A stretch of 64,000 nt of DNA, from contig NZ_WYET01000001.1 of NCBI RefSeq assembly GCF_013376415.1, positions 806,001-870,000 on the forward strand, in the 5' to 3' direction. The notes beneath the pieces are model-generated. The model had not been told where the DNA came from, did not search any database, and was given only the letters and a program-made list of their open reading frames with translations. Of this stretch, positions 44,308 to 57,738 are shown piece by piece (positions within the stretch are counted from its first letter, which is position 1; each line of letters starts with the position of its first letter). This stretch comes from Flagellimonas chongwuensis. GTDB lineage: Bacteria; Bacteroidota; Bacteroidia; Flavobacteriales; Flavobacteriaceae. The position numbers and the translations under genes are program-made.

Positions 44308-44375
44308 AAGATGGATAAAACTGTCCAATGCGGTAGCCACCAATTGATGAATGCCCCTTATGAATTGACGGATGC
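44308..44375 (-). promoter_or_regulatory. Shared regional promoter, copy (b)
   Basis: On the minus strand: GCATCCGTCAATT (distal) and GCATTCATCAATT (proximal), starts 21 bp apart, then 28 bp, then CATCTT in the place of TAACTT. The methyltransferase start is 23 bp downstream. Confidence 0.65.
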
Positions 44376-45495: not shown

Positions 45496-45563
45496 AAGTT
45501 AAATGAAATATAAGGTTAAATTACCCATGAATTGACGAATGCCCCATTTGGGTTGACGGATTT
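45496..45563 (-). promoter_or_regulatory. Shared regional promoter, copy (c)
   Basis: On the minus strand: AATCCGTCAACC (distal) and CATTCGTCAATT (proximal), starts 21 bp apart, 28 bp, then TAACTT. The lipoprotein start is 50 bp downstream. Confidence 0.65.
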
Positions 45564-45590: not shown

Positions 45591-47780
45591 TCACCGGTTA
45601 AACCAATAGGTAAACTTGAGCGTCAACGACCATAAATTTCCTTCAAGCGGCGATAGTTGCTCGTTGTTGTTGAATACCAAAAATAAATCGGAAGCTGGGG
45701 CATACCGCCATTGCAACCTCGAGTTGATGCCAAAATTATTGATCTGCTCATTGTATTGGAAAAGGGTGTTCCAAAACAATTTATTGGTGAAGGTGATGTC
45801 CGCTTCCGTGCCCACCAGCCAAAAATCCGTGGTATACCATGGTTCGGGCAGATCAAGATTATTGTAGCTGAGGACAGCGCCCAAACTCACGTAGGGTTGA
45901 AAACGATACCCCAGTTCCGCATTTAGGTTGGTTCGGTATCCCCCAGAAAAATAGCGGCCCAATCGGGTAGTCAGATTATAGGTGAACAAACTTTTAGGAC
46001 GCGAATTGTACGAAAGGTATACGCCGTTCCAATGGTGGCGGGTACCGGTTGCCAGTTCCTCCTTGCCCGTGTTAGTGGGGTCGAAAGGTGCCAAAAGCTG
46101 TACATATTCATTAAAAACATCGACTCCCAAGGAACTACGATCTATAAAGTTTACCGCATACCCCAAAATGGAGACATAATCTGTGGAATTCATATTAGGG
46201 TCAAAATAATAGAAACCGGTGTATTGTGGCCCATGACTCACTACGGTTTCGCTGGCTGGTAAAAACAAATGACCTACGGAACCTTCCAGTTTAACGTAGT
46301 TGGTACGGGGCACAAAACCCACTTCCGAAGTAAAATCATCGGAAATATATTCCTGCTGTACCCGCCAGTTCCATCTACGGCTGCTATATTGTAAATGGGC
46401 CCCCTGTGCAATTCCATTGTAGGAAGAGTCGGGACCGAAGGATTTCAACATAAAAACTTTTCCATTGTACTTATTGTCCGCAGAGGCCAAGTTGTATTCA
46501 AGTCCAAGGTTTCTATTGAACTTCGTGTATTGGGTCTGAAGACTATCGGCCAAGGAATTGTAATCCAGCGATTCCTTGTTAACGAACATCAAACCAATAT
46601 TGGAACGCGAGAATACCTTTTGTTGTAAAGAGAGTACGGCAAAGTTCTGGCTTGGTAGACCTGTTTCGTCCAATTTGTCGGTCTGCATGTCCATCATGCC
46701 TAGACGGAGGTTGCGGTTAAGGTTTCCACTAACCCTTGCCCCGGCAATTATGGGCACGCCCAATCCGATTCTGCGGGAAAAGAAAGGACGTATCTCATCA
46801 TATCCAAAACTGGCAAAGAGGTCAGCGTTTTCCAGAAAAAACTGACGCCTTTCGGGGAAGAAGAGCTCAAACCGGGTCAAATTGGCTACTTGACGATCGG
46901 CTTCAACCTGTGAAAAATCTGGGTTTATGGTCAAATCCAAATTTAAAGAAGAGGTGAGCCCTAATTTAACATCGCCACCCACTTTAAATTCATTCTCATA
47001 ATCGAGATTTTCGATACTCGAATTGCCAACAGTGCCCAATACGTAGGGGATAATGGAATAATTTAGCCCTTGTTTTGGGGGTGGATTGTCCCAGACCATA
47101 GTGCCGGTATAGGCCAAAGATGCCGTCGGGAACTGTCTTGGAATCGGTGTCCAGCTCGATTTTTCGTTGGTGCTCAAATCCAACCGGGAAAAGTTGACGC
47201 CCCATTCGGTCACATCTTTTTCATACCGGATGGATTTAAAGGGAATGGCCATTTCTACCACCCATTTGTCTTCATAATTTTGAACTTCCGAAACCCATTT
47301 ACTGTCCCAATTCAGGTCGATACTGCCGCCGTTGGACATGGTGCCATCCCATTGGGCACCATAGGCGTTAGCCCCAAAACTAAACCCAGTGGTCTGGTTG
47401 TTGAACGGGTCCATGAACAACAAAAAATTATCGTTGCCCCCAAAGGAAAAGTCCCTGCGGAGCGATTCCACTACATAGGTGTTACCTGGAGTCTTAAAAA
47501 AAGTAGCCAACAGATAGAGTTGTTTGTCATCGTAAGCTATTTTTACTTCGGAAGGTTGTGTGGCCTTGCGGTCGTCCATGGGCAAAACCATAAAAAAGTC
47601 GTTTGCTGGTTCTGCCTTTTGCCATGTTTCCTCGTTGTCAAGACCATCAATAGTGAAGGTTTCGGTAGTCTTGAAAAGATGAATTTTGTAATCTGCATTT
47701 TTCTTTTGGGCATGTAAAAACACACAAAAGAACATGGCTAATGCCATGAGGACGGGGGTGAGGTTGGTTCGGTTGATCAT
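45591..47780 (-). CDS. DUF5916/CBM9-like outer-membrane protein
   Basis: 729 residues from the ATG at 47780; an upstream in-frame Met (47828) adds 16 residues and would put the signal peptide at the wrong place. The signal peptide ends about VFLHAQ. Residues about 30-200 are a carbohydrate-binding family 9-like domain (TFTIDGLDNEETWQKAEPANDFF, then WGVNFSRLDLSTNEKSSWTPI), and a long strand-rich barrel (DUF5916) ends in LTLKFTYWF. The substrate is unknown. It is the only unit of the accessory block with no shared promoter copy. Confidence 0.82.
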   Translation of the reverse strand: MINRTNLTPVLMALAMFFCVFLHAQKKNADYKIHLFKTTETFTIDGLDNEETWQKAEPANDFFMVLPMDDRKATQPSEVKIAYDDKQLYLLATFFKTPGNTYVVESLRRDFSFGGNDNFLLFMDPFNNQTTGFSFGANAYGAQWDGTMSNGGSIDLNWDSKWVSEVQNYEDKWVVEMAIPFKSIRYEKDVTEWGVNFSRLDLSTNEKSSWTPIPRQFPTASLAYTGTMVWDNPPPKQGLNYSIIPYVLGTVGNSSIENLDYENEFKVGGDVKLGLTSSLNLDLTINPDFSQVEADRQVANLTRFELFFPERRQFFLENADLFASFGYDEIRPFFSRRIGLGVPIIAGARVSGNLNRNLRLGMMDMQTDKLDETGLPSQNFAVLSLQQKVFSRSNIGLMFVNKESLDYNSLADSLQTQYTKFNRNLGLEYNLASADNKYNGKVFMLKSFGPDSSYNGIAQGAHLQYSSRRWNWRVQQEYISDDFTSEVGFVPRTNYVKLEGSVGHLFLPASETVVSHGPQYTGFYYFDPNMNSTDYVSILGYAVNFIDRSSLGVDVFNEYVQLLAPFDPTNTGKEELATGTRHHWNGVYLSYNSRPKSLFTYNLTTRLGRYFSGGYRTNLNAELGYRFQPYVSLGAVLSYNNLDLPEPWYTTDFWLVGTEADITFTNKLFWNTLFQYNEQINNFGINSRLQWRYAPASDLFLVFNNNEQLSPLEGNLWSLTLKFTYWFNR

Positions 47781-47848
47781 TGTTTGTTTAGTGGAGTAAA
47801 TGTAATAATTTACTTTGTTTTTTAACAATGAATTAAAACTAGCGTGGT

Positions 47849-47944
47849 TATATTGTCAAATAATTATGTGCAATCTAAAATGATGGATTGAGGATGGAGT
47901 GGTTGGGAGTGTTTTAGGTGTTGCACTTATCGTTTGACAATATA
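47849..47944. repeat. 12-bp inverted repeat pair upstream of DUF5916 gene
   Basis: TATATTGTCAAA at 47849-47860 and its exact reverse complement TTTGACAATATA at 47933-47944, 72 bp apart. It could be the ends of a small degraded element or two opposed promoter-like sequences. Not explained by any gene. Confidence 0.5.
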
Positions 47945-48046
47945 AAATCGGTTGGGTTTTCGGAGTGCGTTCCTGTTCACCGTTGCAGAAAGTTGAAGAG
48001 AACGAGTGCTGGCAAATCACTGAACCCCAACTGTTTTATATTGTGT

Positions 48047-48060
48047 GTTGGCGGCTGGCA
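48047..48060. repeat. Cassette boundary, left
   Basis: GTTGGCGGCTGGCA. Its partner at 48989-49002, reverse-complemented, reads GTTGGCGGTAAGCA (11 of 14 matches). The two flank exactly one AT-rich gene, the pattern of a gene cassette. Confidence 0.6.
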
Positions 48061-48061
48061 T

Positions 48062-48976
48062 TTATTTATTAGTCCGTTTTGAAATATACTTTTCATATCC
48101 TAATTCACTATCAAAGCAGTTTTTTCCACGTTTATTGACAAATTTCAATTTCATCCAATCTACTAATCTCTTTGTAGTACCTTCAAATGATTTTGATTTA
48201 TCAATCGCATTACCTTTATCGAGATATTGATTGCAAAAATGTATGTAATAAAGTGTGCCATAACCAACAATTACAAATGGTGATGAAAGATGAATAATTT
48301 CAAATCTACGCCATTTGTCAGAATCTATGTAAATTCCTTTGTCATCTGAGCCTTTTATTATTTTGTCATTATCCAATTCATACGAACTAAAGAAGAAGTC
48401 TAAATATTTATGATTAATGGTAATAATCTTTATTATCTTATCAAATGAGACTTTTTCAAAACGCCTAATATTTTCGGGAAACTCAAAGAACCAGCAATAA
48501 ACATAAAGTTTAAGGTCGTTATATATAAAACTTAAAAAATCCTTTAAATCATCTCCAGTCCAATAACTATTGAATTCAGTGAATTTATATTTTATGTTTG
48601 GCTTTTCACAGAATGATATTGGATTAGAAAACAAATTATCTGTCGGTGAGTAATCTATATCAATAGAAAGAGCTTTTGTCACTTTATTACAGGACGTACA
48701 AGTTGTAAAAACAACAATTTCCCTATAATCATTTGTTCCAAATCTGGGAGTGTAATTAAATTGAACATTAAACCACTCATTTCTACAGGAACATTTTTTC
48801 TTCTTGGGATATTCATTCTGAATCAAGTCATACCAAAAGTCTATACTTTCGAGGATTAAATAATTGTCATCCTTTTTTGTTGTGAGTAATCCAACTCCAT
48901 CTTCCTTCAGAAAACGAACTTGAAATTCACTTTCACCTGACTCAGTCAATATTTTCAGTTGTTTTTCTGTTTGCAT
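48062..48976 (-). CDS. AT-rich hypothetical protein (cassette gene)
   Basis: 304 residues, with no signal peptide or membrane segment. Two Cys pairs lie in CSCRNEW and CTSCNKVT (about 100 and 133), a possible zinc site. I do not recognise the family. The base composition is visibly AT-richer than its neighbours, and the gene fills almost the whole interval between the inverted boundaries at 48047 and 48989, so it is probably horizontally acquired. The shared promoter copy (d) lies upstream but outside the cassette. Confidence 0.7.
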   Translation of the reverse strand: MQTEKQLKILTESGESEFQVRFLKEDGVGLLTTKKDDNYLILESIDFWYDLIQNEYPKKKKCSCRNEWFNVQFNYTPRFGTNDYREIVVFTTCTSCNKVTKALSIDIDYSPTDNLFSNPISFCEKPNIKYKFTEFNSYWTGDDLKDFLSFIYNDLKLYVYCWFFEFPENIRRFEKVSFDKIIKIITINHKYLDFFFSSYELDNDKIIKGSDDKGIYIDSDKWRRFEIIHLSSPFVIVGYGTLYYIHFCNQYLDKGNAIDKSKSFEGTTKRLVDWMKLKFVNKRGKNCFDSELGYEKYISKRTNK

Positions 48977-48988
48977 CGTGTCTTTTTA

Positions 48989-49002
48989 TGCTTACCGCCA
49001 AC
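48989..49002. repeat. Cassette boundary, right
   Basis: TGCTTACCGCCAAC, the inverted partner of the boundary at 48047. Confidence 0.6.
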
Positions 49003-49025
49003 GTTAAAGATATGATTCGTTTTAA

Positions 49026-49045
49026 TACTTCGGCTACGCTCAGTA
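49026..49045. repeat. REP-like palindrome, copy 1
   Basis: TACTTCGGCTACGCTCAGTA: ACT/AGT arms around the core TCGGCTACGCTC. The same core occurs in argD and downstream of proC. Confidence 0.6.
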
Positions 49046-49060
49046 CGCAGTGAATTATTT

Positions 49061-49141
49061 TGACCGATAAGTGAAGTTAGCAGATTTCCGGTTGAATCTC
49101 CAGAAGAAATTGACCAATGCCCTACTTCAATTGACGGATGC
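49061..49141 (-). promoter_or_regulatory. Shared regional promoter, copy (d)
   Basis: On the minus strand: CATCCGTCAATT (49140-49129) and CATTGGTCAATT (49119-49108), starts 21 bp apart, then 28 bp, then TAACTT (49079-49074) and the extended CACTTATCGGTC. Best-conserved copy. The AT-rich gene starts about 98 bp from the box, across a REP and the cassette boundary. Confidence 0.7.
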
Positions 49142-49240
49142 TCTAATTTGCCATATTTTTAGACAAAAGATTAATTGGTTGATGTGTTTAAGAAGATTTT
49201 TAGCAATAAGCATCTATATCAATCTTGCGGAGTACGCAAT

Positions 49241-52200
49241 TTATTTGATTGCCTTTTCCAAATATGTTTTGGCCTTTTTGATCATTGCTTTGGCAGGCTC
49301 ACCTTTTACCACAATAGATGATTCGTTCCTAAAATACTTGCTGTTTTCATCACGAAGTGCAGAAAACCAGTTGAACGAACCATCAATAATTATGTCATTG
49401 TCGATTATAATTGTTTTGCTATGGATGCCATTTACCAATTTCAATTTCGCTCCACTTTGCATAATTATCTCACGGCCTTTCTGGGCTACAGGTTTTAGCT
49501 GATTATTTTGTAGGTCAAGTGTTGAGTCCGTAATTATGGTAACCTTTATCCCTTTATTGACGGTATTGCTTAGTTGTTCCTTTACAGAATCGATTTTAAT
49601 TGAGGTCAATTTTCTTTTGTCATTGTTATCAAAGCACTTGATTGTATCACATTCTATCGCATTCGAAGAAATGAACGGGGAAACAATAATCAGTTCAGAT
49701 TTTGCAATTTCGAATGCACGGTTAAGTGTGCCAACATGCGTTTTTAAGTCAGCGACGCGAATTACATCGTGATTTGTTTCTGTAGTATCAAAAACAATCT
49801 TGTTGGACAACTCACAATTTTCATCTTCTTGTAGCCATTGTTTTAAACGGCCCAACGGATTGTTCTTTGTTGCATCAATGGCGTTTAGATTGCCAAAAAC
49901 AAGAAAACTTGATTTTGCTCTCGAAACGGCTACATTGAGCATATTTAGATTGTCGGCAAAGAATGTACTGTCGCCTGGTGTAAGTACAGTTGAAAAAATA
50001 ACAATATCGATTTCAGCACCTTGCAATGCGTGAACCGTACCAGATATCAACTTTTGATATGCTTTTTTATCAACCTTTAAGAGCTCACTTTTAATAAGGG
50101 ACGCTTGGGATTTATAGGGAGTAACTATGGCAAGTATTTCTGCAATAGGTTTATTGCCAAAAGAATTTTCAAGTTCCGCTCTCTTGCTTTCAATCCATTT
50201 GGAAATGGTAATGGCATCTTGATGGTTCTGTCTACTATTTCCCACCTTATCACTTGTGCTTTCAATGTGCATAAATCCTTTTAAAGGAAGGTCTATGTCC
50301 ACCTTTCTTTTATTCCCTTTGGTCAGGATCAGTTTGTTGTGATATACATTTTTGTTTGAATAGGAAATAATCTTGTCCGGGCATCTCCTATGTTCTTTTA
50401 AAAGTGTACCTCCGAGTTCACCATCTTTCACAAAACAGGAACGTTGGGCCATTTTCATTAAGCTACCGGACGAACATAGTAACCCTGAATCCTTATAGTT
50501 ATTGATTGCATCATCGGAAGCATCCTTGGCCAGGATATTGTTCATTTTAAGATTGACAATATCGAGTTTTTCCTCCACGGACCAAACAGGTTCTATCTGA
50601 AATACATCACCTACAACAATTGCTTTTTTTGCCAAGGAAAATGAAGGTATTGAAATATCTGGAGCAACTTGTCCAGCTTCATCAACAATGATCAGGTCGA
50701 ACAAATCGTAATAGGCTTGTTCACCTTCGGCATTATCGTAAAAGGTACTAAACCTAGGAATTGAATGAAAGGTGGAGATATAAATGGGTGTTGCCCCCGC
50801 AAACCGCTGTAGTTTTTCTTTATAACCAATCTTGCCCCGCTCCTTATCCTTGCTGTTTTTTTGGAGCTTGGCCTCAAGGTTCAGTAAATATTCAGCTTCT
50901 CTAAAATGTATGGCATACCAAAAAGCTTCATAACGGAACGAAATATCCATTCTAACCTGCATATCCTCCAACGGTTGTAAATTTTGATATTCTTTGCCGG
51001 TCATGGACTGAAGTTTGGTGAATTGGTCACCATAATTGTTGTTCCAGTCATTAATGCAGGATTGATAATTGGAAGTAAACTCCTCAACCTTGTTTTTAGA
51101 GTCAATGGCATGGGTCAACTCTATGTCCAGTTGTTTGGCCGAGTTGGTCTTTGAAATAATTTTCTCGTTGAGCAAATGAATCAAAGCACTGTAGCTGCTG
51201 TAGTCCGAAACTTCCTTCAAGTCAATATGTAACAGTGTTCTTTGAAATAGTGAAGCCCTTCGCTCCTTAAATTTTGGAAGAAAGGAAAATGCTTTTTGGA
51301 TAAATGGTTGTTGTTTTTCTACTTGTATCAGATTCTTTTCTGCATCCGAAATTTGTTGAATTTCAGCGTTGCAATTCTCAACCTTGGTTTGAATAGAGGA
51401 AACAAGTTCTTTTAAATCATCAAGATTGGAACATCCACTTTTTTCTAAAAGCAGACCTATGTTTTCATAGTTTTCAGCAATTTCAAGATGCTCCCTAATG
51501 TGATTGACTTTTGATTGAACTATATTGAATAATTGATGTTTGCATTCTTCAATATCCTTGCTTTTTTCAATATATGCTTCGAACTCATTTAGAAAGAACT
51601 CTTTTTTATCATCAACCGGGTCACTTTCAAAATCATTTATAAAACCGTTTCCAAATTCAGAAGTACAGGTCTGATACTTTTTGTTTTCATTGGTGGATAG
51701 GTATAGCCCTAAAGAGGATAAACCAGGTAACCAACGTTGGGTCAATTTATCCTTTGAGTCCAGTACAAAACTGTCAAGTATATTTGTTATGGCTTGATTG
51801 TTTGCGGAACATGCGACCAGTAATTCTGGTTTTTGCTGATTTACAACAGTGGAGACCACACTATTTGCAACAACGGACTGTAAAAAGGTGGTTTTCCCAG
51901 TTCCTGGTGGGCCATTTACAGCCAAGATATTTGAATCCGTAAGAAGATTAAAACAAGCAATACTTTCTCTTTGCGATACGGATAGGGGAAACTCGCCACT
52001 CATTTGCCCAATGTGATTTTTGTTCCGAATGATCGTGGATTTATCAGGAATCGACATGCAGTCTACTTTCCCGGCATCAATTAGGCTATTGAGCAAACTG
52101 TTTTTAGGAGGTGCCTCTTCGAGTCTTTTATATAGTTTTCGGATATTTCCTGTTAGGCCGCGTAGTTCACCTTTTTGTATGAATATATGTTTTTCGTGCT

Positions 52201-52735
52201 TTGTGTTGAACTCATCAAAGTTCTTCGCTGTTACAATCGAAAAAAAAGATTCGCACTTTTTCCAGTATGCTTCCCATGAATCGTCTTTGAACTCAACTTT
52301 CTGTAAGGCAATATCAACATCTTTTATGGATGCGATATTACAGGAACCTTTGTAGGTAGGGGAAAGGTATTCCCTAACAAAAAACGGTCTGGATACACCC
52401 TTATTGGATTTTTGTGGCTCAAGTGTCCCATCTTTGTACATTATTGCTGGGATCCAAAAAGGATAGGCTATTTCTTCCTCCAGCTCCTTTGATCGTGCAT
52501 GCTCAAATTCTGGTTGGATTGAACAAGGGCAAATATCTACGTTTATATATGGTGTATCTCTGTTGGCCCCAGAAATTTTCCACAAGAATTTTGCGTGTTT
52601 TTGAGGTACTTGCTGTATAAAGTAGGAATCTACGGGAATCGGGTGTGTGGAAACATCAATTCTTTTTCTGTCAACATCTAACAGCGTTTTTTTCCAATAA
52701 CCCAACCAAGCTTTTATATCTGAAACCTCTACCAC
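49241..52735 (-). CDS. SF1 helicase-PLD nuclease, Mokosh type II-like
   Basis: 1164 residues. SF1/Upf1-like helicase (AAA_11/AAA_12) with Walker A GPPGTGKTTF (275-284), DEAG (685-688), VVGDVFQIEP (707-716), VHALQGAEIDIV (901-912) and NVAVSRAKSSFLVFG (934-948). A long coiled insertion separates the first two motifs (about 390-640). Residues 980-1164 form a phospholipase D-like nuclease with one HxK motif (HSK, 1105-1107; GSFN, 1119-1122). Mokosh type II is defined as one gene joining an SF1 RNA helicase with a C-terminal PLD domain, the same order. So an anti-phage role is likely; it was not tested here. The shared promoter copy (e) is 86 bp upstream. Confidence 0.85.
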   Translation of the reverse strand: MVEVSDIKAWLGYWKKTLLDVDRKRIDVSTHPIPVDSYFIQQVPQKHAKFLWKISGANRDTPYINVDICPCSIQPEFEHARSKELEEEIAYPFWIPAIMYKDGTLEPQKSNKGVSRPFFVREYLSPTYKGSCNIASIKDVDIALQKVEFKDDSWEAYWKKCESFFSIVTAKNFDEFNTKHEKHIFIQKGELRGLTGNIRKLYKRLEEAPPKNSLLNSLIDAGKVDCMSIPDKSTIIRNKNHIGQMSGEFPLSVSQRESIACFNLLTDSNILAVNGPPGTGKTTFLQSVVANSVVSTVVNQQKPELLVACSANNQAITNILDSFVLDSKDKLTQRWLPGLSSLGLYLSTNENKKYQTCTSEFGNGFINDFESDPVDDKKEFFLNEFEAYIEKSKDIEECKHQLFNIVQSKVNHIREHLEIAENYENIGLLLEKSGCSNLDDLKELVSSIQTKVENCNAEIQQISDAEKNLIQVEKQQPFIQKAFSFLPKFKERRASLFQRTLLHIDLKEVSDYSSYSALIHLLNEKIISKTNSAKQLDIELTHAIDSKNKVEEFTSNYQSCINDWNNNYGDQFTKLQSMTGKEYQNLQPLEDMQVRMDISFRYEAFWYAIHFREAEYLLNLEAKLQKNSKDKERGKIGYKEKLQRFAGATPIYISTFHSIPRFSTFYDNAEGEQAYYDLFDLIIVDEAGQVAPDISIPSFSLAKKAIVVGDVFQIEPVWSVEEKLDIVNLKMNNILAKDASDDAINNYKDSGLLCSSGSLMKMAQRSCFVKDGELGGTLLKEHRRCPDKIISYSNKNVYHNKLILTKGNKRKVDIDLPLKGFMHIESTSDKVGNSRQNHQDAITISKWIESKRAELENSFGNKPIAEILAIVTPYKSQASLIKSELLKVDKKAYQKLISGTVHALQGAEIDIVIFSTVLTPGDSTFFADNLNMLNVAVSRAKSSFLVFGNLNAIDATKNNPLGRLKQWLQEDENCELSNKIVFDTTETNHDVIRVADLKTHVGTLNRAFEIAKSELIIVSPFISSNAIECDTIKCFDNNDKRKLTSIKIDSVKEQLSNTVNKGIKVTIITDSTLDLQNNQLKPVAQKGREIIMQSGAKLKLVNGIHSKTIIIDNDIIIDGSFNWFSALRDENSKYFRNESSIVVKGEPAKAMIKKAKTYLEKAIK

Positions 52736-53076
52736 AATCCTAATTTTTAATGAATCAACCCATGGAAATGTTGAATGTTAATAGTCTATCTAGTGGGGGA
52801 TTGGAAAAAATCAAATAATGAAGTTAGTGAATATGGGCCAGAAATTCCTACATCAATTGACGAATGGCTGTTTTGAATTGATGGATTTTTGAATCCTGCT
52901 TCATTATCCAAGCCAGGGATAGCAATTTTGTCTCCTTTGAAAATCGTAAGGTCTTTCAGGGTAAAAATGAAACTAAAAAGAAAGCAGAGAGAAATTGATG
53001 CTGGTTGTATTTTCTAAAAAGGATTGAAGAGAGGAATAAGGAGGTCAACACAACCAACTTTGTTGTACACCACTTT
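52736..53076. other. Intergenic gap upstream of the helicase gene
   Basis: 341 bp without a gene. It holds the shared promoter copy (e) at 52821-52887. The rest is AT-rich; a weak ACAAC/GTTGT hairpin at about 53048-53066 may be the end signal of the gene at 53077. Nothing else is seen. Confidence 0.45.
52821..52887 (-). promoter_or_regulatory. Shared regional promoter, copy (e)
   Basis: On the minus strand: ATCCATCAATT (distal) and CATTCGTCAATT (proximal), starts 21 bp apart, then 28 bp, then TAACTT. The helicase start is 86 bp downstream. Confidence 0.68.
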
Positions 53077-53559
53077 TTATTTATTGTCCAATTTAAAAAC
53101 CCAAATACCAATAACTATAGTTAAGGAATATATTAAAGCTAAAATTGTCTGTTCAGATCCTACTATAAGAAATCCTTTATCTACAATGTAAAATGTAATC
53201 CACACGGATAAAAAGGCATAAGTGGATAATATAATTTTCTTCGATAAGTTCGAATATCTATTTTTCAGTTTCTTTTTTATCAGCCAAAAAATAACCATTG
53301 TGGGTATAGAATAAACAAAACCAACAATAATCATGGTAAGTATTATATCAAAAGAACCGTAAAAACTCAGAGTGTCACTAAAGTTTGAATCAGTTACTAT
53401 AGCTCCTAAAATTAATGCTATCAATAGTGGTGAGATGACTATTGTGAATAACCAAATTGTGATTATATATTTCATTGGCTTGTTATTCAAGTTGAAAAAT
53501 ATAGAATTCAGAACTTCTTTTACTGGTTCGTTGTCCCATTTTTGTTTCTCAGTTCCCAT
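53077..53559 (-). CDS. Small four-helix membrane protein
   Basis: 160 residues from the ATG at 53559 (one codon pair earlier, 53565, or the later Met at 53475 are alternatives). Four hydrophobic segments at about 34-56, 68-90, 105-125 and 135-155. No family recognised. The reading frame overlaps the end of the GNAT gene by about 40 bp, so the two are translationally coupled and probably share copy (f). Confidence 0.6.
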   Translation of the reverse strand: MGTEKQKWDNEPVKEVLNSIFFNLNNKPMKYIITIWLFTIVISPLLIALILGAIVTDSNFSDTLSFYGSFDIILTMIIVGFVYSIPTMVIFWLIKKKLKNRYSNLSKKIILSTYAFLSVWITFYIVDKGFLIVGSEQTILALIYSLTIVIGIWVFKLDNK

Positions 53560-54056
53560 TTCCAAATAAGCCCATCATCCGGGTCGTTGATTTCTTCAAC
53601 TTTTTCAAAACCACATTTCAGCAGCACTTTGGTTGAAGGGTTCTCAAATCCGAGGGTGTGTGCAATTATTGTTTTTACGCTACTGTTCTTAAACGCATTT
53701 TCAATAAGCCCTTTTGTCATTTCAGTTGCTAGCCCTTTATTACGGTAGGCCGGAGCGATTTCATATCCAAGCTCAACGGTTCCATCTGACGTTGGTTTTC
53801 CTTTGTAACCACCGCTTCCTATCAATCTGTTATCCTTTTTGTGAATGGGGAAATAGGTCCACCAATCTTTTTCATCTTCATTTTCCGTAAGCTTGTCAAG
53901 TGAGTATTGTAAAGCGCCAACTCCAAACTCTGTCCAATTGTCTTGTATGGTAACACCTAACTTTTGGGCAATGCTATCATTTCCTTTAATAGCTGCTTTT
54001 AAAATTTCACTGTTACACGGAATTAGTCTCAAGTGTTCTGTCTCAACTGTAGCCAT
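53520..54056 (-). CDS. GNAT family N-acetyltransferase
   Basis: 178 residues from the ATG at 54056; an upstream in-frame Met runs through the shared promoter copy (f) and is rejected. TEHLRLIPCNSEIL at the start and LGYEIAPAYRNKGLATEMTKGLIENAF (acetyl-CoA binding loop) mark a RimJ/RimL-like GNAT. The substrate is unknown. It is first of a two-gene unit with the membrane protein. Confidence 0.82.
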   Translation of the reverse strand: MATVETEHLRLIPCNSEILKAAIKGNDSIAQKLGVTIQDNWTEFGVGALQYSLDKLTENEDEKDWWTYFPIHKKDNRLIGSGGYKGKPTSDGTVELGYEIAPAYRNKGLATEMTKGLIENAFKNSSVKTIIAHTLGFENPSTKVLLKCGFEKVEEINDPDDGLIWKWELRNKNGTTNQ

Positions 54057-54079
54057 TAACTGAATTTTAGGTCTTCGCT

Positions 54080-54152
54080 GAGTTAAGTTAGAGGTTTTCC
54101 GGTCGAAACTAAGGAAGAAATTGACCAATGCCTTGTTTGAATTGACGGATGC
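54080..54152 (-). promoter_or_regulatory. Shared regional promoter, copy (f)
   Basis: On the minus strand: CATCCGTCAATT (54151-54140) and CATTGGTCAATT (54130-54119), starts 21 bp apart, then 28 bp, then TAACTT (54090-54085). The GNAT start is 29 bp from the box. The distal repeat touches the stop codon of the M1 peptidase gene. Confidence 0.7.
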
Positions 54153-55744
54153 TATAATTTTCCCATATCCTCAAACAATGTCCACTCATTTGGATCTAAA
54201 ACAACGGAATCGGGTCGGTCTTTGCTTTCCAATTGGATGTTTTGGTTGCGCTGGTCCAACTCAATGGTTTTTATGGTCAGTTTCCCATCTTTTACCACAC
54301 CTATTTCCAAAGGAAACTCAAATACATGGTGGTCCTGTAATTGCTGCAGGGTGAGATTGATTTTTCCATCGGCGTAATTCCACTTCCATTTAATCTGCGG
54401 GTGGCCTTTTATAAACAGCCATTGCTCAAAAAAGGACGCCAAATCTTCTCCAGATGTCTCTTCCATCACCTCTCTAAAATCATCCGTAAGCACATTGCTG
54501 TTTTGATACTCGGTATAATAAGTTCTGATACCTTTCCAGAATACACCATCACCCAATTTGTGACGTAGCATGTTCAATACCCAACCTCCTTTTTGATAAG
54601 TGTTGGTGCTCAACACCTTCATTGGGTCCTTAATGGTAAGGTCAACAATGGGGACGGGGTTTTTTCGGTAATACTCAAAGATTTGCCGTTTATCGATGGC
54701 CAACTCCTCTTTTCTGCGGTCATCACCATATTCGTTTTCTAAATAGAGAATGCAGAAATAGGTTGCAAAACCCTCACTCAACCACACATGGTTCCAGCTT
54801 TTTTCGGTTGCTGAATTTCCAAACCATTGATGTGCAATTTCGTGCGCAATCAAAGGTTCAACTGTTTTGTTTCCTGTCACCGAATTTTCAAAATAAGCGA
54901 TGGTGCCTGCATTTTCCAGTCCACCCCACTGTGTTTTCGCCTGCATATTGGCCAGTTTGGCATACGAATAAGGTCCAATATGATCTATAAAATATTCCAG
55001 CACATGTCCTGCTACTGTATAATCGCTAAAACCCTCCAACCGGTTCTGTGGATATACCCATGCCGTAACCTCAATTCCATCAATGTTGTCCACGACTCGT
55101 GAAGCAAATTCTGTAACACCAATCGTCATTACTTTTGTGGCTACTGGGGCAGGCTCGCTATAAATCGTGAGTTTAAAGCCATTTTCAAGATTACTTTCCT
55201 CCACTTTTTTGCCCGTTGCCACCACATCGTATTGTTCTGGGGCAGTGATCCGGAATTCCACACTGGCCTTGTCGTATGGATGGTCTACAGACGGCAACCA
55301 ATGCCTAGCCAAGTTGGGCCAATTGTCTCCAAAAAAAGAGCGCTTACCATACTTAGTGGTATCAATGACCAAGCCTTTTTCGGGCACCCCCTGATATTTG
55401 ATGGTGAACGTTTGTACGGAATCCTTTGAATTTTTAGGAACGATGTTGATTTTGTTATTGGTGTAAGTATAGTTCGCCTTGATGTTTTGTTCTAATACTT
55501 CGGTGACTTCCATGCCAAATTCTCCCGATTTTTGGATGAGGTCCAAAGCAAATGGAACCATACCCTCCTTAAAACGAACTGTTACTTCGGTCTCCCCTTT
55601 GATTTTGTTGGAAGCATCATTCAATTGAAGGGCAAAAACATAGTTTTGAATATCTACCGATTCATTTTTGGCATAGAGGTCTTGGGCATTTCCAGTGAGG
55701 CAAGCAAAAATAAAAGTGAATACAAAGGTTACACTATGTTTCAT
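54152..55744 (-). CDS. M1 family metallopeptidase
   Basis: 530 residues from the ATG at 55744, which starts a clear signal peptide (ends about LTGNAQ); a longer frame would overlap the restriction enzyme gene. HEIAHQWFGNSATEKSWNHVWLSEGFATY contains HExxH plus the third ligand Glu 18 residues later. WGGLENAG matches the GxMEN exopeptidase motif, with Leu in place of Met. It would be a secreted aminopeptidase. It starts 22 bp after the end of the restriction endonuclease gene. Confidence 0.9.
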   Translation of the reverse strand: MKHSVTFVFTFIFACLTGNAQDLYAKNESVDIQNYVFALQLNDASNKIKGETEVTVRFKEGMVPFALDLIQKSGEFGMEVTEVLEQNIKANYTYTNNKINIVPKNSKDSVQTFTIKYQGVPEKGLVIDTTKYGKRSFFGDNWPNLARHWLPSVDHPYDKASVEFRITAPEQYDVVATGKKVEESNLENGFKLTIYSEPAPVATKVMTIGVTEFASRVVDNIDGIEVTAWVYPQNRLEGFSDYTVAGHVLEYFIDHIGPYSYAKLANMQAKTQWGGLENAGTIAYFENSVTGNKTVEPLIAHEIAHQWFGNSATEKSWNHVWLSEGFATYFCILYLENEYGDDRRKEELAIDKRQIFEYYRKNPVPIVDLTIKDPMKVLSTNTYQKGGWVLNMLRHKLGDGVFWKGIRTYYTEYQNSNVLTDDFREVMEETSGEDLASFFEQWLFIKGHPQIKWKWNYADGKINLTLQQLQDHHVFEFPLEIGVVKDGKLTIKTIELDQRNQNIQLESKDRPDSVVLDPNEWTLFEDMGKL

Positions 55745-55766
55745 TGAGTATTGTTTGGGGCAATTT

Positions 55767-56519
55767 TTATTTTCTTTTTTCCACAGTAACCCATGTTTTA
55801 TCAAATCCGATTGCTTCAAGTATTTTGTCCTTATTCAAAGCTTTCGGGGGCTTCAGTTTTAAAATTAAACTGCTTGTCGGCACTTCTTCGATAATTGTGA
55901 ATTGCGAACCGTGAGGTTGCCAAACGAATCTTTTGTTATCCGTTCCTTTGTGGAAGCCTTCGAGGTTTCCGTTCTTATTCCAAGAGAATTCAAATAGTTC
56001 TGGGTCGTATCGAACGGTGTCATATTCGAAAACGGCGACCTGAGTTAAATCATTTGACTTTACGAGAACCACGGTTCTTAAGTGTTTAAACTTTTCGCGA
56101 ATTGAAGAAACTCTTTCGTTCCAAATTTCAAGAACTTGTTCGCCAACTTCATCTGGGTCAGCAGAGGTGTCGATTGTACCACCATAAGAGTAGACTATCG
56201 AATTCCGACCTGAAATAAGTCGTACCTTATTCAGGTTTCTGAAGTCTTTTACTCCCGATTTTACTGTCTTAGCACCCCAAGCCGTGTTGCCTAAAACCAC
56301 ATCATCAAGTCCAACGTTTGAAGGTTTCCAATCTGCGCCAATGCAATGCGCGAATATTTCTTCCCATTCTGAACCTTCAAGAACTCCTTTACCTTTAGAG
56401 GCAAGCAGATAAACAATTTCTCGTCCAAGTATGTACGGAAACTCCGAACCAAATTCATTAAGAGGATAAGGTGGCAGAGATTTATTAACGGTCCGAAGTT
56501 TTGGTGATTTTTTACTCAT
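55767..56519 (-). CDS. Probable type II restriction endonuclease
   Basis: 250 residues. The protein is directly coupled to the cytosine methyltransferase gene by TAATG (one base shared), the standard arrangement of a type II pair. GLDDVVLGNTAWGAKTVK (70-87) carries Asp72/Asp73 and Lys84, and Glu51/Glu53/Glu54 precede it: a plausible PD-(D/E)xK-like centre. The recognition site is not predictable from sequence. The partner and the absence of other functions make the call reasonable. Confidence 0.75.
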   Translation of the reverse strand: MSKKSPKLRTVNKSLPPYPLNEFGSEFPYILGREIVYLLASKGKGVLEGSEWEEIFAHCIGADWKPSNVGLDDVVLGNTAWGAKTVKSGVKDFRNLNKVRLISGRNSIVYSYGGTIDTSADPDEVGEQVLEIWNERVSSIREKFKHLRTVVLVKSNDLTQVAVFEYDTVRYDPELFEFSWNKNGNLEGFHKGTDNKRFVWQPHGSQFTIIEEVPTSSLILKLKPPKALNKDKILEAIGFDKTWVTVEKRK

Positions 56520-57505
56520 TAATTCGGATTATATTTTAAATCGTATTCTCTTAAAACTGCCGCTTGGTCTAATGAAGTTGCGACATAGGGTAGAAGCTTC
56601 TGAACAACAGCTTTTATCATGTTGACTGGTACTGCATTTCCTGCTTGTCTTTTAGCTTGTCCATCGCTGACCACAATTTTAAACCAATCAGGAAAACCTT
56701 GAAGTCTTAGCATTTCTCGGGGTGTTAAACGTCTTTCTCCATTAACCAAAAGGTAGTTGTATGAGGCACCTGCTCTTAACGCACAGGAAAATGGATATGA
56801 CGAAATATTACCTGACTTGTTCTCGTGCCAAATCGAAGGATAGAATGAAGATTTATGGCTTTCTTTTCTTTTGTTCTTTATGTAGTCCGAAGCGAAATGC
56901 TTTTTGTCAACTTTCTTTTCTAAGATTTCAGTTAGTGGCTTAAAGGGTTTGATTGGGTCTGGATATGTGAACATTATCGGTTGTTTGTGTCCGACAATTA
57001 CAATTCTTTCTCTCTTTTGAGGAAGCCCGTAATCAAGAGCGTTTAATACGCTGTATTGAACATGATAACCGAGGTCTTTTAGGGATTTTAAAATTACTTT
57101 GAGCGTATTCCCTTTATCATGCCCGACAAGTTGTTTAACGTTTTCAAGGATAAATGCTTTTGGCTCTTTTTCCTTAATTATTCGGGCAATGTCAAAGAAC
57201 AGAGTTCCCCGAGTGTCGTTTAACCCTTTCATCTGACCTATAATGCTGAATGGTTGGCAAGGAAAACCTGCAAAAAGAATATCATGGTCAGGAATTTCTT
57301 TTTCGTCAACTTGAGTAATGTCGCCATGTGGTCGTTCACCAAAATTAGCTTCATAACTGTCCTGAGCAAACTTATCAATGTCTGAAGAAAAGACACATTC
57401 TGCGTTAATTTCCTGCTCTTCGCAAGCTTCTTCAAAAGCTATTCTGAAACCACCGATTCCGCAGAAAAGGTCAATAAATCGTATTTGTTCTCTACTTTCA
57501 TACAT
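56519..57505 (-). CDS. DNA (cytosine-5) methyltransferase
   Basis: 328 residues, a usual C5-methylase length. Motif I LFCGIGGFRIAFE (13-25), motif IV FAGFPCQPFSIIGQ with catalytic Cys, motif VI ENVKQL, motif VIII PQKRERIVIVG, motif IX RRLTPREMLRLQGFPD and motif X QAGNAVPVNM are all present. The target-recognition region is short, between VIII and IX. The gene is first in an operon with the restriction enzyme, with the shared promoter copy (g) 134 bp upstream. Confidence 0.93.
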   Translation of the reverse strand: MYESREQIRFIDLFCGIGGFRIAFEEACEEQEINAECVFSSDIDKFAQDSYEANFGERPHGDITQVDEKEIPDHDILFAGFPCQPFSIIGQMKGLNDTRGTLFFDIARIIKEKEPKAFILENVKQLVGHDKGNTLKVILKSLKDLGYHVQYSVLNALDYGLPQKRERIVIVGHKQPIMFTYPDPIKPFKPLTEILEKKVDKKHFASDYIKNKRKESHKSSFYPSIWHENKSGNISSYPFSCALRAGASYNYLLVNGERRLTPREMLRLQGFPDWFKIVVSDGQAKRQAGNAVPVNMIKAVVQKLLPYVATSLDQAAVLREYDLKYNPN

Positions 57506-57639
57506 AAGTCAAATTTACTTTCGTTTGTGGCAACTTAAAAGTCTGTCTGCTACTTTTTGTTAACATGGTTACTGTCGTTTTTAATTATCCCAACGGTTAG
57601 CTAAATATCGTTTCAATGGTTTTTAGCGTACGATAAGTG

Positions 57640-57707
57640 AAGTTAGTATTTTTCGGGTTCAAATTCTAGCTACAATTCATCAATGCCCCCATTAGGATTG
57701 ATAAACC
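57640..57707 (-). promoter_or_regulatory. Shared regional promoter, copy (g)
   Basis: On the minus strand: TTTATCAATCC (distal, weak) and CATTGATGAATT (proximal), 22 bp apart, then 28 bp, then TAACTT with CACTTATCG after it. The methyltransferase start is 135 bp downstream of the box. Confidence 0.6.
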
Positions 57708-57738
57708 AGAAATCAACACTTGATAAGTAGTGGTATCT

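What the first reader, a model, noticed from the sequence alone, without database searches (positions are those of the whole stretch)
49241..52735. Single-gene helicase-nuclease resembling Mokosh type II
The protein joins SF1/Upf1-like helicase motifs I, II (DEAG), III, V and VI in order with a C-terminal phospholipase D-like unit (HSK at 1105, GSFN at 1119). Mokosh type II defence is defined as one gene with these two parts, so the match is by architecture. A long coiled insertion (about 390-640) separates motif I from DEAG. It is surrounded by other accessory genes and shares the regional promoter.
Basis: partly seen in the sequence, partly recalled or inferred. Interest (0 to 1): 0.75.

Follow-up and report, generated by a model that had tools for sequence, protein, structure and literature searches.

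The report
One-gene Mokosh type II phage defence
A marine bacterium carries an intact one-gene anti-phage system of an already described kind (a motor protein fused to a nucleic-acid cutter), sitting in a spot where related bacteria carry other genes or none.

Summary
The gene is on the MINUS strand, window 49241-52735 (1164 aa, GTG start). It matches PADLOC MkoC end to end (1030.7 bits, profile 5-1134 of 1136). Key residues of the helicase motifs and of one HxK-D-GSxN motif are invariant in 10 aligned proteins, itself and nine homologues. Residues 981-1164 fold confidently (pLDDT 82.9) as a Nuc/NucT-type nuclease (1byr Z 15.8). It is a Mokosh type II system, not a new kind. It is accessory: no orthologue in 59 other same-genus genomes searched, though Allomuricauda abyssi has a frame-shifted one. 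Two by-products. (1) An MkoC profile hit alone does not prove Mokosh II: 4 of 7 sampled genomes with a hit at E up to 1e-100 carry a relative without the PLD domain. (2) The 'regional promoter' is real: a 21-nt-period, LytTR-like direct repeat, often 28-29 nt before a TAnnTT element, found in 36 of 60 genomes of the genus, 0 of 38 from other families and 0 of 247 from other genera of the family. It lies upstream of mkoC, where homology with A. abyssi starts.

The parts
49241..52735 (-). mkoC, 1164-aa SF1/UPF1-like helicase with C-terminal PLD nuclease domain (Mokosh type II)
51887..51916 (-). helicase motif I (Walker A) NGPPGTGKTT, residues 274-283
   Evidence: invariant in the 10 aligned proteins; coordinates checked
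50966..51580 (-). variable-length insertion before motif II, about residues 386-590 (205 aa here, 97 aa in two homologues, 182-218 aa in seven)
50672..50683 (-). helicase motif II DEAG, residues 685-688
   Evidence: D, E and G invariant; coordinates
50585..50611 (-). helicase motif III region GDVFQIEPV, residues 709-717
   Evidence: G709, D710, Q713 invariant; coordinates
50012..50041 (-). helicase motif V GTVHALQGAE, residues 899-908
49913..49936 (-). helicase motif VI NVAVSRAK, residues 934-941
49244..49795 (-). PLD nuclease domain, residues 981-1164
   Evidence: PLDc_2; AlphaFold2 pLDDT 82.9; Nuc/NucT fold; profile match to 1byr, 6ehi, 4ggj
49370..49423 (-). HKD active-site motif HSK(x4)D(x6)GSFN, residues 1105-1122
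   Evidence: H1105, K1107, D1112, G1119, S1120, N1122 invariant in the 10 aligned proteins; coordinates
52855..52887 (-). direct-repeat box (two 12-mers, 21-nt period) 119 nt before the mkoC start; LytTR-like
   Evidence: counts in genomes
52819..52826 (-). TAACTTCA, -7-like promoter element exactly 28 nt after the box
49108..49140 (-). next direct-repeat box, 3' of mkoC and upstream of the 304-aa gene; homology with A. abyssi ends 38 nt beyond it
54119..54151 (-). direct-repeat box upstream of the GNAT gene and close to the 3' end of the M1 aminopeptidase; the homology block of that gene ends within 15 nt of it in 9 of 9 relatives compared
48062..48976 (-). 304-aa protein of no family found; neighbouring gene, not beside mkoC in A. 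abyssi
55767..57505 (-). neighbouring C5-cytosine methyltransferase (56519-57505) with 250-aa partner, possibly a type II restriction-modification pair (partner's role inferred)
   Evidence: methyltransferase: Pfam PF00145, PADLOC MTase_II; partner: no family found

Best explanation
The gene is an intact, single-gene Mokosh type II (MkoC) anti-phage system, acquired horizontally and kept under purifying selection. Most likely an SF1 UPF1-type motor (ATP bound at K281, hydrolysed through D685/E686) loads on and travels along single-stranded nucleic acid made during phage infection, probably RNA. It brings to it a C-terminal PLD domain that pairs with the same domain of a second chain into one active site and cuts the phosphodiester backbone through a phospho-histidine at H1105, without a metal ion. 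Shown here: gene, motifs, family, predicted PLD fold, accessory distribution, purifying selection. Inferred from the families: substrate (RNA about 0.6 over DNA), catalytic steps, dimer, trigger, and defence activity of this copy.
For: Full-length MkoC match, 1030.7 bits. Pfam AAA_11, AAA_12, PLDc_2. Motif residues of helicase and HKD invariant in 10 aligned proteins. PLD model pLDDT 82.9 with Nuc 1byr Z 15.8, NucT 6ehi Z 15.6, Zucchini 4ggj Z 12.6. Helicase part nearest to UPF1, NAM7, SEN1, SMUBP-2 and DNA2 among solved chains (single sequence agrees, without DNA2). Matches over residues 1-1164 at 77-92% identity in four genomes, one of them frame-shifted; 48 of 626 matching plasmid records cover at least 80% of the query, all under 60% identity. 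dN 0.038 and dS 0.40 against the A. abyssi copy over 1127-1128 codons. No orthologue in 59 other same-genus genomes searched. PMC10013915 (passages read) describes Mokosh type II as mkoC with an N-terminal RNA helicase and a PLD nuclease effector.
Against: No experiment here. The A. abyssi copy is frame-shifted after residue 1128, losing the conserved tail, so the system may be dispensable. RNA as substrate rests on family resemblance only; the matched helicases include SMUBP-2 and DNA2, which act on DNA as well (recalled). The full-length fold could not be predicted (pLDDT 28.6). The window protein has one full HKD motif (other H-x-K triplets at 47, 180 and 799 lie outside the PLD domain), so activity would need a dimer, which was not modelled.
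Confidence: 0.85

Rival explanations
1. A housekeeping RNA/DNA-processing helicase-nuclease of the host rather than a defence gene.
For: UPF1-like helicases are housekeeping in other organisms (general knowledge); one copy only in the genome.
Against: No orthologue in 59 other same-genus genomes searched; GC 0.375 against 0.409 for the window; the site lacks mkoC in 15 of 15 relatives fetched (A. abyssi has it); homologues on plasmids, one beside drt3a/drt3b reverse-transcriptase defence genes.
Confidence: 0.04
2. An MkoC-type protein whose defence acts on DNA intermediates (replication forks, recombination ends), not on phage RNA.
For: Closest solved PLD folds are the endonucleases Nuc and NucT; SMUBP-2 and DNA2 are among the helicase matches.
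Against: Best helicase profile matches are the RNA helicases UPF1 and NAM7; papers call the helicase an RNA helicase (PMC10013915, passages) or say that Mokosh degrades viral transcripts (PMC11291487, passages), though neither passage shows an experiment.
Confidence: 0.3
3. A decaying, non-functional copy.
For: The closest copy, in A. abyssi, is frame-shifted near its C-terminus.
Against: Motifs intact and no stop in 1164 codons; dN/dS about 0.1.
Confidence: 0.05

Closest known systems
Mokosh type II (MkoC), PADLOC PDLC03924
   Same: One gene; profile covered 5-1134 of 1136 positions; helicase then PLD in the same order; one HKD motif.
   Different: Nothing seen in the protein beyond sequence divergence and insertion length; in this genus it sits behind a promoter box that the three mkoC loci from other families lack.
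PLD-less MkoC-like helicases (G112, G369, G479, G750, viral L102)
   Same: 896-962 bits to the MkoC profile in the four genome copies, over about its first 85%.
   Different: End before the PLD domain; no HKD motif in the gene or in the fetched surroundings; form one side of a branch, support 79/80.
Mokosh type I (MkoA + MkoB)
   Same: Helicase part matches MkoA (116.2 bits) and PLD part matches MkoB (36 bits).
   Different: Type I splits the parts over two genes (recalled); here they are fused.
Nuc / NucT single-HKD nucleases; Zucchini/PLD6
   Same: Fold of residues 981-1164 (Z 15.8, 15.6, 12.6) and HxK-D-GSxN motif.
   Different: Fused to a helicase; 17-19% sequence identity over the aligned residues.

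Membership tests
Mokosh type II (MkoC) | best defence profile is MkoC, full length | tested here: met
   1030.7 bits, residues 7-1161 on profile 5-1134/1136
Mokosh type II (MkoC) | SF1/UPF1-type helicase motifs I, II, III, V, VI in the N-terminal part | tested here: met
Mokosh type II (MkoC) | C-terminal PLD domain with HxK(x4)D(x6)GSxN in the same protein | tested here: met
Mokosh type II (MkoC) | single gene, no obligatory partner | tested here: met
   by inspection of gene lists, no neighbour is shared by the mkoC loci of the window, L005 and L043-L046, and the genes next to it differ between the window and L002; neighbours were not compared by profile
Mokosh type II (MkoC) | protects a host from phage | not testable with these tools
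   needs plating assays
Nuc-type single-HKD nuclease (for the PLD part) | Nuc fold | tested here: met
   1byr Z 15.8, rmsd 2.0 over 139 residues
Nuc-type single-HKD nuclease (for the PLD part) | two chains form one active site | not tested
LytTR-type binding site (for the upstream box) | 9-nt direct repeats with a 12-nt spacer just upstream of a promoter | tested here: met
   21-nt period, which is 9 + 12 if the repeat core is taken as 9 nt; TAnnTT at +28 or +29 in 12 of 24 own-genome sites; spacing rule from passages of PMC6193735
LytTR-type binding site (for the upstream box) | bound by a LytTR regulator | not testable with these tools
   no regulator was sought or assigned

The most novel reading that the evidence does not exclude
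In this genus accessory genes of the argH-to-CBP745 spot, defence genes included, behave as 'promoter-headed cassettes': a gene begins with the same LytTR-like direct-repeat box plus a -7-like element, and exchange happens between boxes, so that a defence gene imported from another family (homology to the Ancylomarina copy starts just after the promoter element) is put under a host regulon as it arrives.
Probability: 0.25. Interest if true: 0.5.

Novelty: new member of a known kind. Interest (0 to 1): 0.3.

Why it matters
As a defence system it is ordinary: one more Mokosh type II. It is useful in two ways. It shows that an MkoC profile hit must be checked for its PLD half, since a PLD-less lineage scores almost as high and could be counted as Mokosh II. 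And it points to a promoter box found only in this genus among the genomes searched, ahead of a defence gene and its neighbours, which makes it testable whether defence genes join a host regulon on arrival.

Tried and rejected
Full-length structure: AlphaFold2 with four permitted close sequences gave pLDDT 28.6 and was not used. Viral contigs with the single sequence: no relative; with the alignment, 14 loci, of which I examined 9 (L100-L108): 4 cover most of the query and 3 of these have an HKD motif. sigma-70 promoter scan of the region: 37 found against a mean of 29.6 (sd 4.4) in shuffles, uninformative. Rfam and tRNA scans of the window: nothing. First pattern for the repeat was too strict and found 0.

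Recent transfer of mkoC between the two Allomuricauda lineages by synonymous divergence: mkoC dS 0.40, but the 10 other genes compared range from 0.16 to 1.23 and two of them are lower than mkoC, so no claim is made. Homology block ends at boxes: 37 of 121 interior block ends lie within 15 nt of a box against 3.9% for random positions. This is suggestive only: about 32 of the 37 are the same place (3' end of the M1 aminopeptidase) seen in many pairs, and ends tend to fall between genes, where boxes are. Not every box has the phased element: TAnnTT is at +28/+29 in 12 of 24 own-genome sites and at +28 in 7 of 26 sites of relatives, where the next commonest offset has 4; several of these sites precede paralogous genes and are not independent. 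mkoC itself starts 119 nt after its box, farther than is usual. Not every genome of the genus has the box at this threshold: 24 of 60 have none.

The box as an integron attC site was considered and rejected (direct, not inverted, repeats). TAACTGA heptamer repeats (PMC4679880, passages read) are a different repeat. The tree used a wrong ORF for G750 and was replaced. The PLD-less group has only moderate support (79/80), and the tree is unrooted, so one loss of the PLD is likely but not shown. The MkoC profile at E up to 0.001 rings in 219 of 395 genomes and 10 of 14 controls, because it catches other UPF1-like helicases; only E up to 1e-100 was used for counts (at which 1 of 14 controls, E. 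coli, rings). PADLOC, Pfam and NCBIfam on the 304-aa and 250-aa neighbours and plasmid searches with them: nothing. Paper search for 'MkoC' listed only unrelated papers among the 10 shown of 676; the Mokosh searches showed no paper on the mechanism of MkoC in their listings, which is no proof that none exists.
Full report
OBSERVATION. The finding's interval holds one ORF on the minus strand, GTG start at 52735-52733, stop at 49241-49243, 1164 codons with no stop; the plus strand, in the frame read, is closed. The genome (G000, 3.77 Mb) has one copy. In an alignment of ten full-length proteins (the window protein and nine homologues of 28-79% identity to it) the residues of motif I (N274-T283), II (D685, E686, G688, Q689), III (G709, D710, Q713), V (G899-H902, L904-A907), VI (N934, V935, V937-A940) and of the HKD unit (H1105, K1107, D1112, G1119-N1122) are invariant. 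The insertion lies at about 386-590 and varies in length: 205 aa here and in three near relatives, 97 aa in two homologues, 182-218 aa in the other four.

IDENTITY. PADLOC MkoC matches residues 7-1161 with profile positions 5-1134 of 1136 at 1030.7 bits; next are MkoA (116.2 and 71.4 bits) and MkoB (36 bits), which I recall as the type I proteins. Pfam gives AAA_11, AAA_12 and PLDc_2 above cut-off; NCBIfam gives no family at its cut-off. Against solved structures the helicase part, as a profile, finds UPF1, NAM7, SEN1, SMUBP-2, DNA2 and others; the PLD part finds Nuc, NucT and mitochondrial cardiolipin hydrolase (Zucchini/PLD6). The best solved folds are Nuc 1byr (Z 15.8, rmsd 2.0 over 139 residues) and NucT 6ehi (Z 15.6); Zucchini 4ggj reaches 12.6 (Foldseek also ranks Nuc first). 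The passage of PMC10013915 that I read describes Mokosh type II as mkoC with an N-terminal RNA helicase and a PLD nuclease as effector, and a table of PMC10952713 (passage) lists the PLD-like domain under both Mokosh types. The primary description (Millman et al. 2022) was not read. Membership is therefore met on every feature testable here.

RELATIVES. Genome contigs gave four near relatives: Allomuricauda abyssi (92%), Ancylomarina euxinus (79%), Alkalitalea saponilacus (77%) and Labilibacter marinus (77%). The last three belong to other families (Marinifilaceae and Marinilabiliaceae as printed), so the gene moves between families. Among 98 other genomes near the host, 59 of them of the same genus, none holds an orthologue; 7 hold only partial helicase matches of 27-36%. 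A. abyssi, whose flanking genes are 70-98% identical to the window's at the protein level and which is therefore surely close kin, does have one. Of 626 plasmid records with a match, 48 cover at least 80% of the query.

A CAUTION ABOUT THE PROFILE. In two overlapping samples of 395 genomes each (the class; the phylum) seven distinct genomes have an MkoC match at E up to 1e-100. Four of them (G112, G369, G479, G750) carry proteins of about 970-1000 aa that stop before the PLD domain and have no HKD motif, yet score 896-962 bits. No HKD motif was found in the fetched surroundings either: 12-16 kb for G112, G369 and G479, a shorter stretch for G750. A viral contig (L102) has another. The other three have an HKD motif: the window's genome, G204 and G657, whose gene is split over two frames. 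On a tree of the helicase part the five PLD-less proteins are one side of a branch with support 79/80, unrooted. So the PLD must be checked in each MkoC hit; here it is present.

WHERE IT SITS. Between argH and a conserved 745-aa protein (45591-47828, which I call CBP745) lies a variable interval. In a search of 59 genomes, 36 of them of the genus with the own one, 16 other genomes have CBP745 at 82% identity or more; I fetched 15 of them, leaving out G014. None has mkoC there. In G022 and G013 the M1 aminopeptidase is followed at 231 and 363 bp by CBP745 (coordinates), in G029 argH lies 198 bp from CBP745, and in G019 about 12 kb of other genes lie between. A. abyssi has mkoC at the same place, followed by a different pair (HTH/IrrE-like metallopeptidase, PADLOC RmrA-like, and a DUF4411/PIN protein). 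The window has a C5-methyltransferase with a 250-aa partner between argH and the aminopeptidase, and GNAT, 162-aa and 304-aa genes beside mkoC. mkoC has GC 0.375 against 0.409 for the window. Against A. abyssi, dN is 0.038 and dS 0.40 over the first 1127-1128 codons, so selection is purifying; that copy is frame-shifted after residue 1128.

THE 'REGIONAL PROMOTER'. Five boxes of two 12-mers with a 21-nt period (CATCCGTCAATT-like) lie on the minus strand at 54119, 52855, 49108, 45530 and 44342, ahead of the GNAT, mkoC, 304-aa, 209-aa and 255-aa genes (the loose scan of the 64-kb window lists 13 hits in all, the other 8 weaker or overlapping, against a mean of 2.9 and a maximum of 7 in 20 Markov controls). 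In the own genome 17 sites match the consensus with up to 3 mismatches, 0 for the reversed pattern. In 98 genomes, 36 of the 60 of this genus (own included) have such a site and 0 of 38 from other families of the order, reversed control 0; in a sample of the family, 0 of 247 genomes from 234 other genera have one. In the own-genome loci looked at, 15 of 18 sites with a following ATG-started ORF have that ATG 53-68 nt after the box, the others at 93-146; for two sites and for mkoC (GTG, 119 nt) the script found none. A TAnnTT element follows the box at +28 or +29 in 12 of 24 own-genome sites, no other offset having more than 2; in relatives' hotspot loci it is at +28 in 7 of 26 sites, the next offset having 4. 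LytTR-family sites are direct repeats mostly separated by 12 bp, just upstream of the promoter (PMC6193735, passages; AgrA repeats centred near -60, PMC4227749, passages); that the half-site TCCGTCAAT fits the LytTR consensus at 8 of 9 positions is from recall. For mkoC the element is TAACTTCA at 52819-52826. Homology with A. abyssi runs from 52888 to 49070, from one base outside one box to 38 nt past the next one; homology with Ancylomarina begins at 52810, just inside the promoter, and no box was found in the Ancylomarina, Alkalitalea and Labilibacter loci (only 280 and 538 nt lie upstream of the gene in the first two). This supports that the imported gene sits behind a promoter type of its present genus; that boxes are the exchange sites is suggestive only (with the caveats under Tried and rejected).

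MECHANISM. Most likely the UPF1-type motor loads on single-stranded nucleic acid formed in infection, probably RNA, and delivers a dimeric, metal-independent PLD nuclease to it. Motor and nuclease parts are shown by sequence and, for the PLD, by predicted fold; substrate, trigger, catalytic steps and dimer are inferred, and protection is untested for this copy.

VERDICT. It is a new member of a known kind, of low to moderate interest; the promoter box and the PLD-less lineage are the parts worth a second look.

Noticed in passing
window 44342-44374, 45530-45562, 49108-49140, 52855-52887, 54119-54151 (minus strand): LytTR-like 33-nt direct-repeat box (21-nt period), often with a TAnnTT element 28-29 nt downstream; 17 sites in the genome at up to 3 mismatches, found in 36 of 60 genomes of the genus, 0 of 38 from other families and 0 of 247 from other genera of the family.
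   Followed up: partly
L048, L049, L051, L126, L102: MkoC-like helicases of about 970-1010 aa without any PLD domain or HKD motif; the four genome copies score 896-962 bits on the MkoC profile; role unknown.
   Followed up: partly
window 47829-57738: Variable argH-to-CBP745 interval in the genus: empty or nearly so (G022, G013, G029), methyltransferase, GNAT and mkoC (window), IrrE-like/PIN pair with mkoC (A. abyssi), or 12 kb of other genes that by eye look biosynthetic (G019, L059).
   Followed up: partly
window 55767-56519: 250-aa protein next to a C5-cytosine methyltransferase, no family in Pfam, NCBIfam or PADLOC and no match in plasmids; possible unrecognised restriction endonuclease.
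   Followed up: partly
window 48062-48976: 304-aa protein of no family found downstream of mkoC, behind its own copy of the box.
   Followed up: partly
L074-L076, L078, L082 (own genome contig C2, 297-311 kb): Five copies of the box within 14 kb, each ahead of a similar-looking gene for a putative lipoprotein (judged by eye from the translations).
   Followed up: no
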